In this document: piece by piece, positions 28,790 through 46,184 of the stretch
How the letters are laid out: the number at the start of each line of letters is the position of its first letter
Numbering within the stretch: position 1 is the first letter of the stretch
DNA from: Solimonas variicoloris DSM 15731
GTDB taxonomy: Bacteria > Pseudomonadota > Gammaproteobacteria > Nevskiales > Nevskiaceae
DNA length: 64,000 bases
Assembly (NCBI RefSeq): GCF_000382285.1
Contig: NZ_KB907926.1
Span: 1 to 64,000 of the forward strand
Direction: 5' to 3'
Program-made: the position numbers and the translations under genes
The notes under the pieces: model-generated
Told to the model about the DNA's origin: nothing
Database searches by the model: none
The model's input: only the letters and a program-made list of their open reading frames with translations

Positions 28790-29365
28790 TGGATTTCGCG
28801 CTGACGCGCGCCCTACTTCTCTTTGCTTGTGCAAAGAGAAGTAGGCAAGAGAAACACACCCCTGGCTTACGCGCCGGCCCTCGCAGTAGCTCGGGCGTTC
28901 GCCGGGGCGGATGTCCACCGGACATCCGCAAACCCCCGGCTCACCCTGCGATGCTCGCCGGCCCGGCCGGCGCTGAAACTCGCGGTGCTGCGCACCGCTC
29001 AAACAGTCAGCGCCGGACAGCCCCGGACCGGCTGCGCTTCTCGGCGCTACGCAAAGGGGACCCAAAAGAAAGCAGCAAAGCGTCCTCGCCACTGCGTTCT
29101 GCGGTTGCCTTTGCCGTACGGGTCCCCTTGGGCCGCACCGAGCAGCGCAGCGCGCGCAGGGAATGGCCGGCCAGGACGGCCGGCCAAGTCGCCGCCGCGG
29201 CAGGGATGCCGCGTCGGCGACGGTCCCGAGCACGTGAGCAGCACAGGGCACTTCGCGCAGCGAAGTGCGGCCCCAGGGGTGTGCTTTCTTTTGCTTACTT
29301 TTCTTTGCACAAGCAAAGAAAAGTGAGGCGCGCGTCAGCGCGAAATCAAATGCCCGATCAGGAAG
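28745..29365. repeat. Composite inverted-repeat element, non-coding
   Basis: About 620 bases with long imperfect terminal inverted repeats. The left arm (about 28775-28865) and right arm (about 29273-29365) share TTCCTGATCGG, GATTTCGCGCTGACGCGCGCC, CTTTGCTTGTGCAAAG and CACACCCCTGG in mirrored order. Each arm contains its own hairpin: 28813-28844 (14-bp perfect stem, TTGT loop) and 29294-29327 (15-bp stem, one T-G pair). Inside are further self-complementary pairs, e.g. AAGGGGACCC (29054) with GGGTCCCCTT (29120). No frame looks like a real protein. It resembles intergenic repeats scattered through Xanthomonas/Lysobacter-type genomes. Confidence 0.75.
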
Positions 29366-42131: not shown

Positions 42132-42148
42132 GCGGCGCCGCTCAGGCG
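42125..42148. terminator. Palindrome spanning two convergent stop codons
   Basis: A perfect 24-base palindrome CGCCTGAGCGGC/GCCGCTCAGGCG contains the GCC-TGA ends of both nadC (plus) and the aminotransferase (minus). It can form a 10- to 12-bp stem in either transcript. No T-run follows. Confidence 0.55.
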
Positions 42149-43272
42149 CGCAGCGCGCGCACCGCCGCCTCGAAGCGCTGCACTGCGCCGTCGACATCGG
42201 CAAGCTTGTCGAGCCCGAACAGGCCGACGCGGAAGCTGCGGAAGCCTTCGGGCTCGCCGCACATCAGCGGCACGCCGGCGGCCGTCTGCAGGCCGAGCGC
42301 GGCGAAGCGGCGGCTGCTGCTGATCTCGACGTCGTCGGTGTAGGCGACGACCACGCTCGGCGCCTCGTAGCCCTCGGCGGCGACGCTCGGATAGCCGTGC
42401 CGCGCGAGCACCGCGCGAATCTGCGTGCCAAGCGCCCACTGCGCCTCGCGCAGCGTCTCGATACCGGCGGCCAGCGTCTTCTGCATCGCGTCGCGCAGCG
42501 TCAGCAGCGCATCGGTCGGCATCGTCGCGTGGTAGGCGTGGCCGCCGTCCTCGTAGGCCTGCATGATCTGCTGCCACTTCTTCAGGTCGGCCGCGAAACT
42601 GGTGCTGCGCGTCTGCTCGAGGCGCCGCCGCGCCTCGGCGCCGAGCATGACCAGCGCCGCGCACGGGCTCGCCGACCAGCCCTTCTGCGGCGCCGTCAGC
42701 AGCACGTCGATGCCGCAGGCCTGCATGTCGACCCAGATCGCGCCGGACGCGACGCAATCGAGCACCAGCAGGCCGCCGTGCGCGTGCACGGCCGCGGCGG
42801 TGCGACGCAGGTAATCGTCGGGCAGGATCAGGCCGGCCGCGGTCTCGACGTGGGCCAGAAACACGACGTCCGGACGCTCGCGCGCGATCGCAGTTTCGAG
42901 TTCGTCGATCGACGGCGGCGCGAACGGCGACTTCGGCGCGTCGGCGACGGCGGACGCGCAAAGCACGGTCTCGCGCGACGGGATGCCGCCCATTTCGAAG
43001 ATCTGCGACCAGCGGTAGCTGAACCAGCCGTTGCGCACGACCAGGCAGTGCCGTCCCGAACCGAACTGGCGCGCGACCGCCTCCATGCCGAAGGTGCCGC
43101 CGCCCGGCACGATGGCGACGGCATCCGCCTGGTAGACCGACTTCAGGGTCGCCGAGATGTCGCGCATCGCCTGCTGAAAACGCTGCGACATGTGATTGGT
43201 CGCCCGGTCGTTGAAAACGACCGAGTACTCGAGCAGGCCGTCCGGATCGACCGACGAAAAGAAGCGCGACAT
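42142..43272 (-). CDS. Class V aminotransferase, alanine-glyoxylate aminotransferase family
   Basis: 376 residues, PLP fold type I. The Schiff-base lysine is in TAPQKGWSASP (about 186-196), with a preceding LDCVASG aspartate and the AHVETAAGLIL segment; RVGLFGLD near the C-terminus is the usual end region. Family members move amino groups from Ala/Ser to glyoxylate or act on phosphonates. It lies 106 bases after the DadA-like gene in the same direction, behind the glycine riboswitches, which suggests it handles glyoxylate made from glycine. The exact substrates are inferred only from context. Confidence 0.87.
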   Translation of the reverse strand: MSRFFSSVDPDGLLEYSVVFNDRATNHMSQRFQQAMRDISATLKSVYQADAVAIVPGGGTFGMEAVARQFGSGRHCLVVRNGWFSYRWSQIFEMGGIPSRETVLCASAVADAPKSPFAPPSIDELETAIARERPDVVFLAHVETAAGLILPDDYLRRTAAAVHAHGGLLVLDCVASGAIWVDMQACGIDVLLTAPQKGWSASPCAALVMLGAEARRRLEQTRSTSFAADLKKWQQIMQAYEDGGHAYHATMPTDALLTLRDAMQKTLAAGIETLREAQWALGTQIRAVLARHGYPSVAAEGYEAPSVVVAYTDDVEISSSRRFAALGLQTAAGVPLMCGEPEGFRSFRVGLFGLDKLADVDGAVQRFEAAVRALRA

Positions 43273-43378: not shown

Positions 43379-44671
43379 CTAGGCGGCAGCGACGCTCAGC
43401 GTCGGCTTGCGCTCCGGCAGACCGCAGAACGCGAAGTCGCAGTCGGGGCGGCGGCCGTCGATGATGTCGGCGATCGCGCGGCCCGAGCCGCAGCCGTGCG
43501 TCCAGCCCAGCGTGCCGTGACCGGTGTTGAGATACAGGCCCTCGACCTTGCTGCGGCCGATGTACGGCACGTTGCCCGGCGTCGCCGGACGCAGGCCGGT
43601 CCAGTGCTGCGCCAGTTCCGCACGGCTCAGGCCCGGGAAGACCTGCAAGGTGCGCTGCACGATCGCCTCGCAGCGCACCCGGTTGAGTGCCATCGAATAG
43701 CCGTCGAACTCGGCGGTGCCGGCGACGCGCAGGCGATCGCCGAAGCGCGAGAACACCAGCTTGAACTCGTCGTCGGTCAGGCTCGCGGTCGGCGCCAGCG
43801 CCGGTTCGAGCACCGGCAGCGTGATCGAATAGCCCTTCACCGGATAGATATCGAGCGCGACGCCGGCGGTGCGCGCGAGCTGCGGGCTGAAGCTGCCGAG
43901 CGCCAGCACGTAGGCGTCGGCCTTCTCGACCTGGTAGGCGCCGGTCTCGTCGGCATACTCGACGCCGAGCATGCGCCCGCCCTCGGCATGCAGGCGCTGG
44001 ATGCGCACGCCATAGCGGAACTGCACGCCGCGCTCGGCGCAGCGCGCCGCCAGTCCGGTCGTGAACTTGTGCACGTCGCCCGATTCATCGGCGCTGGTGT
44101 AGGTCGCGCCGGCCAGCTGCGAGCGGATCTGCGCCAGCGCCGGCTCGATGCGGACCACCTCGTCGGCGTCGATCACGCGCCGCTCGCAGCCGATCTCGCG
44201 CATGATGCGCGCCGGCTCGATCGCCAGATCGAATTCCTTGGCGCTCGTGTAGTAGTGCAGGATGCCGCGCTCGAGATGGTCGTACTCGACACCGGCCTCG
44301 ACGCGCAGCGCCTGCAGGCTTTCGCGGCTGTAGGTGCCGAGGCGCACGAGCTGGATCATGTTGTGCGTCGAGCGCCTGGCGCTGCACTCGCGCAGGAACT
44401 TCATACCCCAGGACCACTGCGTCGGATCGGCGCGCAGGCGGAACAGCAGCGGCGCGTCTTCCTTGCCGAGCCAGCGCAGCATCTTGCCCGGCGCCGACGG
44501 ATTGGCCCAGGGCTCGGCGTGGCTCACCGAGATCTGGCCGCCGTTGCCGAAGCTGGTCTCGCGCGCCGCGCCGGCATTGCGTTCGAGCACCACCACCTCG
44601 TGCCCGGCCTTCGCCAGATACCACGCCGAGGCCACGCCGATCACGCCGGCGCCCATCACGATCACTTTCAT
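43379..44671 (-). CDS. dadA: DadA-type FAD-dependent amino acid dehydrogenase
   Basis: 430 residues. The dinucleotide motif VIVMGAGVIGVASAWYLAKAG (first 20 are the Rossmann turn) opens the protein. SFGNGGQISVSHAEPWANP (about 43-61) and the C-terminal HWTGLRPATPGNVPYIG (about 360-376) plus NTGHGTLGWTHGCGSG are DadA hallmarks. It oxidises small D-amino acids to the keto acid and ammonia, passing electrons to quinone. Because two tandem glycine riboswitches precede it, glycine (to glyoxylate) is a plausible substrate. GGAGC precedes ATG 44671. Confidence 0.9.
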   Translation of the reverse strand: MKVIVMGAGVIGVASAWYLAKAGHEVVVLERNAGAARETSFGNGGQISVSHAEPWANPSAPGKMLRWLGKEDAPLLFRLRADPTQWSWGMKFLRECSARRSTHNMIQLVRLGTYSRESLQALRVEAGVEYDHLERGILHYYTSAKEFDLAIEPARIMREIGCERRVIDADEVVRIEPALAQIRSQLAGATYTSADESGDVHKFTTGLAARCAERGVQFRYGVRIQRLHAEGGRMLGVEYADETGAYQVEKADAYVLALGSFSPQLARTAGVALDIYPVKGYSITLPVLEPALAPTASLTDDEFKLVFSRFGDRLRVAGTAEFDGYSMALNRVRCEAIVQRTLQVFPGLSRAELAQHWTGLRPATPGNVPYIGRSKVEGLYLNTGHGTLGWTHGCGSGRAIADIIDGRRPDCDFAFCGLPERKPTLSVAAA

Positions 44672-44731
44672 CTCAAGCTCCAAAGAAAATGGTGAGGCAG
44701 CGCGGCGACTCGCACCACGCAACCGAAACCC

Positions 44732-44920
44732 CACTGTCCTTTTGCCTGAGAGATTCACCGCACCCCGACGCGGCTTGCCCCTTCGGCGGCCGCTCGACCG
44801 TTGCCGGCGCGGCGCTCTCCAGTTTGTGTGCTGCTTCCAGTATCGAGGCCTGAGCGTTTCGGGTCTGCGCCTTCGGCAGCGCGGCCCCGACGGCAGGGCG
44901 CGCGCGTTCTCCTGGGTTTA
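44732..44920 (-). promoter_or_regulatory. Tandem glycine riboswitch, gene-proximal copy
   Basis: Read on the minus strand, aptamer 1 (about 44920-44838) has GGAGAACGCG, GCCGAAGGCGCAGAC and ACGCTCAGGC. Aptamer 2 (about 44823-44733) has ACTGGAGAGCGCC, GCCGAAGGGGCAAG and CTCTCAGGCAAAAGGACAG. These are the conserved core blocks of the gcvT-type glycine aptamer in the usual two-aptamer order. The second aptamer ends about 60 bases before the dadA ATG, so control of translation or of early termination is possible. No T-run terminator is visible. Confidence 0.92.
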
Positions 44921-45109
44921 CCACGCGAGGGTATGGATGAGTGCGTGAAATGGCCGCCAGCATCGACCGACCGCGATCGCCGCGCGCGCACGCGCTGCAG
45001 GCGATCTTTCTTCGACGATGGCACGGCGGGCCGAAGCCCGAATCCTCCTCTGTCCCGGACGCGAAACGACACCGCAACCCCGCTATACGAGGCAACCGGC
45101 GCCGCTCCC

Positions 45110-45292
45110 GCTGTCCTGGGGCCTGAAAGATTCGGCACGCCGCGGACGGCGACCTTGCTTCTTCGGCGGACCCGCTCGCGCGGATCACTCTTCAGACGGC
45201 AAACAGCGACGCAGTACAGGGACCTGAGCGTTTATGGGAGTTTGCGCCTTCGGTGGGCCGCCGCTCCTGCCGGCTGCCGCTCTCCTGCGTGG
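45110..45292 (-). promoter_or_regulatory. Tandem glycine riboswitch, distal copy
   Basis: A second full pair of aptamers lies upstream of the first. Aptamer 1 (about 45292-45215) has GCAGGAGAGCGGC, CACCGAAGGCGCAAAC and ACGCTCAGGTCCCTGTACTG. Aptamer 2 (about 45205-45110) has GAAGAGTGATCC, GCCGAAGAAGCAAG and CTTTCAGGCCCCAGGACAG, somewhat degenerate. About 190 bases without coding potential separate it from the proximal copy, so the leader of dadA carries four glycine aptamers in series. Confidence 0.85.
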
Positions 45293-45407
45293 CTGGGTGA
45301 AATGTCCTGCCACCGGCAGGCCCGAAGCGGGCCGCAAGCGGCCAATCATTCGAGCACTCAGCATGCCACACGCGACCGCGGTCGCGCACGCCCCAGGCTC
45401 GCCGACC

Positions 45408-46184
45408 TCAGCCGGCGAGCAGGCGTTCGATCACCGGCCCGACGCGCGCCACGTCGCCGCTGCTGCGCCAGTCGACGCGCCCCGCCTGGGCCTCGGGCGC
45501 CAGCAGCCCCTCGCGCTCGAGCACGCGGCGCGCCTGGCGGGCGACCGCCGCGCCGGTATCAAGCAGCGTCACCGCCGGCCCGGCGATCTCGGCGATGGCC
45601 GGCCGCAGGAACGGATAGTGGGTGCAGCCGAGCACCAGCGTATCGGCGCCGTCGCGCAGCAGCGGCTCGATGTAGCGACGCAGCAGCGCGCGCAGCGCCG
45701 GACTGTCGAGTTCGCCGCGCTCGACGAATTCGACCAGGCCCGGACAGGGCTGGGTGATGACGCGCACGCCGTCGCCGTGCTCGGCCTGCAGGCGCAGAAA
45801 CTTGTCACCGGCCAGCGCCGCGCCGGTCGCCAGCACGCCGACCACGCCGCTGCGCGTCTGTCGCACCGCCGGCTTGATCGCCGGCTCGATGCCGACGAAG
45901 CTCAACGGATAGGTCGCGCGCAGCTGCTCGACGGCGGCGATCGTCGCCGTGTTGCAGGCGACGACGATCAGCTTGGCGCCGGCGGCGAGCAGCTCGTCGG
46001 TGATCGCGAAGGCGCGCGCCGCGATCTCGATCGCCGGCTTGCCGCCGTACGGGCAATGACCGCTGTCGGCGTAATAGATGAAATGCTCGTGCGGCAGCTC
46101 GCGGCGCAGCTCGCGCAGCACCGACAGGCCGCCGACACCCGAATCGAACACGCCGATCGGCGCGGCCGTGCGCCCGGCGCTCAC
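45408..46184 (-). CDS. murI: Glutamate racemase
   Basis: 258 residues. IGVFDSGVGGLSVLREL (about 10-26, first catalytic region), VVACNTATI (first catalytic Cys, about 78) and LGCTHYPFL (second Cys, about 190) are intact. It supplies D-glutamate for peptidoglycan. The start is GTG 46184, which overlaps the upstream hydrolase stop as GTGA; longer frames run antisense through that gene. It is the last gene of a five-gene minus-strand run. Confidence 0.95.
   Translation of the reverse strand: MSAGRTAAPIGVFDSGVGGLSVLRELRRELPHEHFIYYADSGHCPYGGKPAIEIAARAFAITDELLAAGAKLIVVACNTATIAAVEQLRATYPLSFVGIEPAIKPAVRQTRSGVVGVLATGAALAGDKFLRLQAEHGDGVRVITQPCPGLVEFVERGELDSPALRALLRRYIEPLLRDGADTLVLGCTHYPFLRPAIAEIAGPAVTLLDTGAAVARQARRVLEREGLLAPEAQAGRVDWRSSGDVARVGPVIERLLAG

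What the first reader, a model, noticed from the sequence alone, without database searches (positions are those of the whole stretch)
44732..45292. Two complete tandem glycine riboswitches in series ahead of dadA
On the minus strand the dadA leader contains four separate glycine-aptamer cores: two near the gene (CCGAAGGGGCAAG and CCGAAGGCGCAGAC blocks) and two more about 190 bases upstream (CCGAAGAAGCAAG and CACCGAAGGCGCAAAC blocks), each with its CTCAGG/CTTTCAGG partner. Single tandem (two-aptamer) glycine switches are well known; two full tandems in one leader would be unusual and could sharpen or widen the response to glycine. The distal second aptamer is the most degenerate, so part of the array may be decaying.
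Basis: partly seen in the sequence, partly recalled or inferred. Interest (0 to 1): 0.75.

Follow-up and report, generated by a model that had tools for sequence, protein, structure and literature searches.

The report
Double tandem glycine riboswitch before dadA
Ahead of an amino-acid-degrading gene in a Solimonas bacterium sit two complete glycine-sensing RNA switches of different ancestry, one behind the other; such stacks are rare but already described, and this one hints at how they may arise when two separately controlled genes come together.

Summary
The minus-strand dadA leader carries four glycine aptamers: tandem A (45297-45098) and tandem B (44924-44724). Rfam scores three of four above its cut-off. 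The fourth, A2, is missed by Rfam but scores best (88.5 bits, E 1.8e-22) with a second-aptamer model trained without this genome or S. flava. All four, and the hairpin after A2, are conserved against Solimonas flava, so decay is unlikely. A is no copy of B: A groups with leaders of the Nevskiaceae family, B with Cupriavidus-type dadA leaders. A has a sigma-54-like site upstream; the promoter that precedes B in Burkholderiales is not recognisable here. Most likely reading: transcription starts upstream of A and crosses two glycine ON gates before dadA, giving low leak and a slightly steeper response. Two tandem glycine riboswitches in series are in print (PMC9481103: 16 quadruplets), so this is a new member of a known kind. 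New here: the mixed ancestry, the sigma-54 link, and a MAG with a broken gene between two tandems, one possible route to such stacks. No transcript or binding data exist here.

The parts
45353..45368 (-). sigma-54-like site TGGCATGCTGAGTGCT (GG-N10-GC) upstream of tandem A
   Evidence: 10 of 12 positions of a recalled consensus; 5 of 500 shuffles of the 260 nt searched reach it; sites of 9 or more in 10 of 13 A-type loci against 1 of 79 other tandems; coordinates; two genes with a sigma-54 DNA-binding domain in the genome
45202..45297 (-). glycine aptamer A1 (first aptamer of distal tandem)
   Evidence: RF00504 47.4 bits; R1 43.1 bits
45098..45204 (-). glycine aptamer A2 with its GCCG...CGGC outer pairing
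   Evidence: R1 88.5 bits, E 1.8e-22; not reported by Rfam; covariation of the class
45065..45106 (-). core of the hairpin after A2, predicted expression platform (terminator-like, short U-tract); it takes up the CGGC of the A2 outer pairing
   Evidence: fold of 45118-45040 gives -37.9 kcal/mol; 0 of 52 substitutions to S. flava over 45114-45063; equivalent hairpins after A-type tandems in relatives
45030..45062 (-). stretch after the hairpin, unchanged in S. flava, role unknown
   Evidence: 0 of 33 substitutions
44925..45029 (-). spacer between the tandems; no gene recognised
   Evidence: 0.136 substitutions per site, 4 gap columns; no match at E 0.01 to the six other loci compared (S. flava excepted)
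44928..44933 (-). TACCCT, at the place of the -10 element that precedes B-type tandems in Burkholderiales; the TGn extension and the -35 are not recognisable
   Evidence: alignment; matrix score -5.0 against 8.2 to 31.9 in the 13 training leaders
44828..44924 (-). glycine aptamer B1 (first aptamer of proximal tandem)
   Evidence: RF00504 36.5 bits; R1 19.8 bits, E 0.0023
44724..44832 (-). glycine aptamer B2
   Evidence: RF00504 63.3 bits; R1 56.2 bits
44682..44739 (-). terminator-like hairpin of tandem B: its 5' arm holds AGTGGGG, the 3' side of P1; its 3' arm runs into ATTTTCTTT
   Evidence: fold (-23.5 kcal/mol); S. flava and Cupriavidus equivalents; alignment
43379..44671 (-). dadA, D-amino acid dehydrogenase
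   Evidence: NCBIfam NF001933 494 bits, cut-off 383; Pfam DAO
42142..43272 (-). class-V aminotransferase downstream of dadA
   Evidence: Pfam PF00266, 41 bits, cut-off 21.5
45408..46184 (-). murI, glutamate racemase, upstream neighbour
   Evidence: TIGR00067 201 bits, cut-off 146.65

Best explanation
The leader is two complete tandem glycine riboswitches in series, each with two aptamers and its own expression platform. Transcription most likely starts from a sigma-54-type promoter at 45368-45353, which would put the start about 45 nt before A1. RNA polymerase then meets gate A (hairpin after A2) and gate B (terminator-like hairpin before dadA). In each gate, glycine binding stabilises P1 of the second aptamer, which uses bases that the hairpin needs, so glycine lets transcription go on: an ON switch used twice, for a gene of amino-acid breakdown. 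Two gates in series multiply, so leak without glycine is lowered by the product and the response is slightly steeper (effective Hill coefficient x1.19 for two equal ideal gates). The two gates differ in ancestry: A is of the type found in the Nevskiaceae family, B of the type found with Cupriavidus-type dadA. They came to lie in series because the stretch between murI and dadA lost, or never had, the gene that A leads in S. marina. Shown: four aptamers, their conservation, the different ancestries. Inferred: promoter use, one shared transcript, both gates ON and acting on transcription, and the way the series arose.
For: Four aptamers. Conservation of both tandems and of hairpin A. Different ancestry: window A with S. 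flava A lies in an 8-row set (97/97) with S. marina peptidase and TonB-receptor leaders and in a 13-row set (100/99) that adds dadA leaders of five other genomes of the family; window B lies with S. flava B and S. marina's dadA leader (99/96), and these with Cupriavidus-type leaders (12 rows, 92/86, not starred). In S. marina, tandem A (82% over 197 columns) follows murI but leads an M20-type peptidase gene, and tandem B alone leads dadA, beside nadC. Sigma-54-like sites of 9 or more precede 10 of 13 A-type loci against 1 of 79 others; the best site upstream of B in the window scores 6 of 12, reached by 460 of 500 shuffles. All 13 Burkholderiales leaders in the matrix have TGnTAnnnT just before the aptamer; the window and S. 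flava do not. Platforms.
Against: No transcript or ligand data. The U-tract of hairpin A is short (GUUUCGCG), and the terminator scan found none in the region (it allows loops of 3-8 only, and shuffles gave 0.8). A promoter-like match between A and B (45043-45015, identical in S. flava) scores 8.2 on the Burkholderiales matrix, as high as its weakest training leader; only 2 of 300 shuffles reach it in the window and 4 of 300 in S. flava. So a start between the tandems is not excluded. S. marina's B also lacks the Burkholderiales promoter by that matrix, so absence by matrix is weak evidence. The sigma-70 scan found none, but shuffles gave 0.0 on average, so it says little. Fourfold sites in the first part of dadA differ by only 0.031, so the low rates in the leader could in part reflect recent shared descent of this stretch rather than constraint, although the spacer (0.136) and the platform-to-start stretch (0.127) have diverged. 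The sigma-54 consensus is recalled, the cut at 9 was set after seeing the scores, and 3 of 13 A-type loci lack such a site.
Confidence: 0.6

Rival explanations
1. Tandem B acts alone: dadA is transcribed from a promoter between A and B, and tandem A is an orphan leader kept because it makes a short glycine-dependent RNA, or because the arrangement is recent.
For: In Burkholderiales a promoter-like motif lies just upstream of B-type tandems (13 of 13); TACCCT remains at that place; a promoter-like match at 45043-45015, identical in S. flava, is reached by 2 of 300 shuffles; dadA fourfold divergence from S. flava is low (0.031).
Against: The -10 extension and the -35 at the Burkholderiales place are not recognisable in the window or S. 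flava, while A, its hairpin and the consensus bases of its sigma-54-like site are kept.
Confidence: 0.3
2. The series arose by duplication of one tandem within the leader.
For: Both units are tandem glycine switches of similar size, and weak cross-matches exist between them (73.6% over 72 columns).
Against: A and B fall in separate parts of the tree, each with leaders of other genes or species.
Confidence: 0.03
3. Bi-mechanism stack: one gate stops transcription and the other controls translation. (This overlaps with the best explanation.)
For: The hairpins differ in U-tract: A short, B running into ATTTTCTTT; bi-mechanism stacks are described for SAM switches in PMC9481103 (passages).
Against: B's hairpin ends before the GGAG in front of ATG and resembles the terminator-like hairpins of Cupriavidus leaders.
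Confidence: 0.12
4. Tandem A is a decaying remnant with no function.
For: A2 is not reported by Rfam.
Against: Low substitution in A1 and A2 and none in the hairpin; 88.5 bits to the lineage model.
Confidence: 0.05

Closest known systems
Quadruplet glycine riboswitches (Sherlock and Breaker 2022, PMC9481103; authors recalled; passages seen)
   Same: Two glycine riboswitches, each with two aptamers, stacked with no gene between; 16 examples reported, predicted to combine cooperative and pseudo-cooperative behaviour.
   Different: The passages seen name no species, gene or origin for the quadruplets, so S. flava could be among the 16. Here the two tandems have different ancestry, A has a sigma-54-like site, and the gene is dadA.
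Tandem glycine riboswitch, RF00504
   Same: Aptamer core, two-aptamer layout, gene of amino-acid breakdown.
   Different: Two in series instead of one; A2 is missed by the Rfam model.
Triple c-di-GMP riboswitch (PMC4759541; only the start of the abstract seen)
   Same: Complete switches for one ligand stacked in one leader.
   Different: Other ligand.
Burkholderiales, Cupriavidus-type dadA leaders
   Same: Tandem B and its terminator-like hairpin.
   Different: No second tandem upstream was seen by core pattern, and a promoter-like motif lies directly before the tandem.

Membership tests
Glycine riboswitch (RF00504) | Covariance-model score at or above the gathering cut-off of 32 bits | tested here: met
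   met by 3 of 4 aptamers: 47.4, 36.5, 63.3; A2 not reported
Glycine riboswitch (RF00504) | Aptamer core and pairings kept in A2 | tested here: met
   R1 88.5 bits; class covariation
Glycine riboswitch (RF00504) | Gene of glycine or amino-acid use downstream | tested here: met
   dadA and a class-V aminotransferase
Glycine riboswitch (RF00504) | Binds glycine and changes expression | not testable with these tools
   needs in-line probing and reporters
Quadruplet (two tandem) glycine riboswitch, PMC9481103 | Four aptamers as two tandems in one leader | tested here: met
Quadruplet (two tandem) glycine riboswitch, PMC9481103 | No intervening ORF | tested here: inconclusive
   open frames of 127 and 171 aa cross the region; the spacer has 4 gap columns against S. 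flava; no coding test was run
Quadruplet (two tandem) glycine riboswitch, PMC9481103 | Each tandem has its own expression platform | tested here: inconclusive
   hairpins after A2 and B2 predicted; U-tract of A short; terminator scan found none
Quadruplet (two tandem) glycine riboswitch, PMC9481103 | Both tandems on one transcript | not testable with these tools
   needs 5'-end mapping
glycine-GGAnGA variant (RF03166) | Score at or above 110 bits | tested here: not met
   no match in the window at the gathering cut-off
Sigma-54 promoter | GG-N10-GC with TGGCAY...TGC context | tested here: met
   sequence only; consensus recalled; use of the site not tested

The most novel reading that the evidence does not exclude
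Stacked riboswitches are made by loss of a gene that lay between two separately regulated genes: the downstream gene falls under the upstream unit's promoter and gate. Here dadA was captured by a sigma-54 promoter and tandem A, so that one amino-acid-breakdown gene needs both a sigma-54 activator signal (often nitrogen shortage, by general knowledge) and glycine sensed twice. The MAG pair L095/L100 would show the intermediate state.
Probability: 0.35. Interest if true: 0.6.

Novelty: new member of a known kind. Interest (0 to 1): 0.42.

Why it matters
It adds a well-anchored case of a stacked glycine switch, shows that the two stacked units need not be copies of each other, and offers a testable route for how such stacks form. 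It also links glycine riboswitches to sigma-54-like sites in Solimonas and relatives, including leaders of peptidase and TonB-receptor genes in S. marina; one search of the held papers for glycine riboswitch with RpoN gave three papers on other subjects by title (listing only).

Tried and rejected
Duplication of one tandem inside the leader: rejected by the tree. Decay of A: made unlikely by conservation and the lineage model. A gene or leader peptide between the tandems: open frames cross the region but the spacer has gaps against S. flava; not pursued, no coding test run. The Burkholderiales promoter matrix did not find B's promoter in S. marina either, so that test is weak. Polarity in Solimonas was not settled: the peptidase gene behind tandem A is found at E 1e-30 in S. 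marina only (1 of 11 genomes), so gain there and loss here both remain possible. How common quadruplets are in wider taxa was not measured. The first alignment with the window's A2 used coordinates 13 bases off and was replaced; no pair count was made on A3 (error), so the count rests on A1 alone.

Full report
What was checked. The finding says that the minus-strand leader of dadA holds four glycine-aptamer cores, as two tandems. I read the sequence, ran Rfam on the window and on the leader, and searched the whole genome. RF00504 reaches its cut-off of 32 bits at 45297-45202 (A1, 47.4), 44924-44828 (B1, 36.5) and 44832-44724 (B2, 63.3). A2 was not reported. I therefore built a model of second aptamers from 16 sequences of loci in the family and in Burkholderiales or proteobacterial MAGs, picked from 22 that extracted apart from the four of the window and S. 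flava. Its structure is backed by covariation on the training set: 96.3% of cells paired, 73 cells with both sides changed against 26 +/- 4 in shuffles; the outer GCCG/CGGC and CUG/CAG pairs never vary and so say nothing for or against those pairings. In the window the model gives A2 88.5 bits (E 1.8e-22), B2 56.2, A1 43.1 and B1 19.8 (E 0.0023); the next match has E 0.83.

Where it is. The genome shares its genus with S. flava (S. flava is Solimonas, Nevskiaceae): DadA is 97% identical to S. flava DSM 18980 and 86% to S. marina. The order is murI, tandem A, tandem B, dadA, a class-V aminotransferase, and convergent nadC. Of the 8 other Solimonas genomes apart from S. flava and S. marina, 7 have nadC directly after murI on the opposite strand, and none of the 8 shows an aptamer core pair in the murI locus with 1.5 kb flanks. 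In S. marina, tandem A follows murI, but it leads an M20-type peptidase gene (Pfam M20_dimer over its cut-off; NCBIfam amidohydrolase 147.1 bits, just under its 153.75), and tandem B alone leads dadA, beside nadC, on another contig. So a glycine-regulated stretch lies beside murI and nadC in these three species.

How rare. Counting core patterns in up to 900 nt upstream, 1 of 80 named dadA loci has four cores (S. flava, L060); the record of the window's own genome may be left out of that list. Of 18 dadA loci found at E 1e-80 in 58 genomes of the family, the window and S. flava have four. With the lineage model at E 0.001, the same two of 11 Solimonas genomes show three matches in the dadA leader (A1, A2, B2; B1 falls below the cut); no other listed leader in those 11 shows more than two.

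Two ancestries. I built a tree of 42 tandems: 34 of the 92 and 8 Cupriavidus-type leaders. Window A sits with S. flava A inside a set of S. marina peptidase and TonB-receptor leaders (8 rows, 97/97) and a wider set that adds dadA leaders of five other genomes of the family (13 rows, 100/99). Window B sits with S. flava B and S. marina's dadA leader (99/96), and these with Cupriavidus-type leaders (12 rows, 92/86, not starred). The tree warns of long branches, S. marina's B among them, and the rows are short. A is therefore not a copy of B. DNA similarity agrees: A matches S. marina's murI-side tandem at 82% over 197 columns (window 45289-45101), stopping at the end of A2; B matches S. marina's dadA leader at 79% over 285 columns, starting inside B1 at 44883 and running into dadA.

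Constraint. Against S. flava, substitutions per site are 0.043 in A1, 0.037 in A2, 0.031 in B1 and 0.030 in B2. The hairpin after A2 (45114-45063) has 0 of 52 and the next 33 nt have 0 of 33. The spacer has 0.136, the stretch from B's platform to the start codon 0.127, and fourfold sites of murI 0.116. Fourfold sites in the first part of dadA give only 0.031 (4 of 127), so dadA itself is unusually similar, and part of the low rate in the leader may follow from that. On balance tandem A does not look like a decaying remnant.

Promoters. Upstream of A, at 45368-45353, lies TGGCATGCTGAGTGCT, 10 of 12 positions of a recalled sigma-54 consensus. The S. flava copy, TGGCATGCTTCGTGCT, differs only in letters outside the consensus. 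In the 100 nt searched before each tandem, 10 of 13 A-type loci hold a site of 9 or more, against 1 of 79 other tandems (the A-type set is the 13-row set; many of the 79 are close relatives of each other, most Cupriavidus-type leaders were not among them because the core pattern misses their first aptamer, and the cut at 9 was set after seeing the scores). The genome has two genes with a sigma-54 DNA-binding domain. For B, all 13 Burkholderiales leaders in the matrix hold TGnTAnnnT just before the aptamer (L075, the fourteenth in the alignment, was left out of the matrix). The window and S. flava keep only TACCCT there. The same matrix also fails in S. marina (best 1.9, 43 of 300 shuffles as high), and it gives a match of 8.2 at 45043-45015, identical in S. 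flava (2 and 4 of 300 shuffles as high). So I favour a start upstream of A but cannot exclude one between the tandems. The simple sigma-70 scan found nothing in 44600-45500, as in shuffles.

Platforms. After A2 the RNA can fold a long hairpin that takes up the CGGC of A2's outer pairing and also GGAC before it (-37.9 kcal/mol). Its U-tract is short; S. marina loci have tails such as CTTTTCG and GTTCTTGTTCTTG. After B2 a hairpin uses AGTGGGG, the 3' side of P1, and runs into ATTTTCTTT, before GGAG and ATG (S. flava); Cupriavidus leaders have a plainer form (GGGGCAGCC...GGCTGCCCCTTTTT). Both point to transcription gates that glycine opens. This direction is inferred from the overlap and from general knowledge of glycine switches.

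What two gates would do. For two equal Hill gates in series the 10-90% range falls from 15.6-fold to 10-fold at n 1.6, an effective coefficient 1.19 times larger; leak is multiplied (arithmetic). The main gain would be a tighter OFF state.

How stacks may form. In MAG L095 the order is tandem, a DAO-family oxidoreductase gene (Pfam DAO, 137.3 bits), tandem, dadA. In its relative L100 (91% over 1165 columns) both tandems stand by model (second aptamers 94.3 and 102.4 bits, first ones 23.0 and 21.9), but the gene between is a remnant matched only in pieces. Further loss would leave two tandems in series. L100 is one MAG contig, so an assembly fault is not excluded. This shows the route in another lineage; in Solimonas it is an inference, since the gene behind A in S. 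marina occurs in 1 of 11 genomes and could be a gain there.

Known or new. PMC9481103 (passages seen) reports glycine triplets (2) and quadruplets (16) and predicts that quadruplets blend cooperative and pseudo-cooperative control. PMC12452182 (passages) treats contiguous riboswitches at large. PMC6944388 was searched for such terms without a match. Searches for glycine riboswitch with dadA (3 papers, listing only), Solimonas with riboswitch (none), glycine riboswitch with RpoN (3 papers, listing only) and tandem riboswitches, gene loss and glycine riboswitch (30 papers with two of three terms, 10 listed, none of these with 'gene loss') gave nothing that I could see describing this case. The library holds open-licence papers only. 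I file it as a new member of a known kind.

Noticed in passing
G000:C2:355577-355970 (L009:2578-2971, minus strand), upstream of gcvT: Ahead of the ordinary gcvT tandem lies an extra copy of the first aptamer, cut after CTCAGG, followed by hairpins with ATGGAT and ACGGAT motifs. An extra aptamer hit upstream of the tandem also occurs in G032 (two extra), G038, G039, G040, G045 and G024; the hairpins were read only in G032, G039 and G045 besides. G032 has two near-identical units of about 199 nt. Rfam's TwoAYGGAY model was not hit in the six loci scanned at E 0.05, so the likeness is by eye; ANGGA loops recall CsrA/RsmA sites (recalled).
   Followed up: partly
window 29160-29227, plus strand: TwoAYGGAY RNA (RF01731, 54.8 bits); six copies over the cut-off in the genome. 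The one passage seen in PMC2864571 is a table row that lists it as a probable RNA without function.
   Followed up: partly
L051 (G040:C6:8000-23000), L049, L050 (S. marina): Six tandem glycine riboswitches, five with a sigma-54-like site of 9 or more, lie ahead of M20 and M28 peptidases, a TonB receptor and a DUF4953/DUF5117 metalloprotease: a possible glycine-regulated peptide-use set.
   Followed up: partly
L095 and L100 (MAGs): Tandem, DAO-family gene, tandem, dadA in L095; in L100 the middle gene is a broken remnant while both tandems stand.
   Followed up: yes
G000:C2:382189-382355 (L010): A further tandem (64.7 and 34.8 bits) leads a gene that by eye looks like an L-serine dehydratase; no family search was run on it.
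   Followed up: no
G038:C5:517-1788 (L063, L156, L179): S. flava has a second dadA copy (83-84% identical to the window's) with no aptamer core pattern in the 516 nt upstream that the contig holds.
   Followed up: no
window 45062-45027, minus strand: The 33 nt after the A hairpin are unchanged in S. flava and hold GAGGAGGA (45050-45043) and the start of a CGGGCTTCGGCCCG hairpin (45040-45027); no role found.
   Followed up: no
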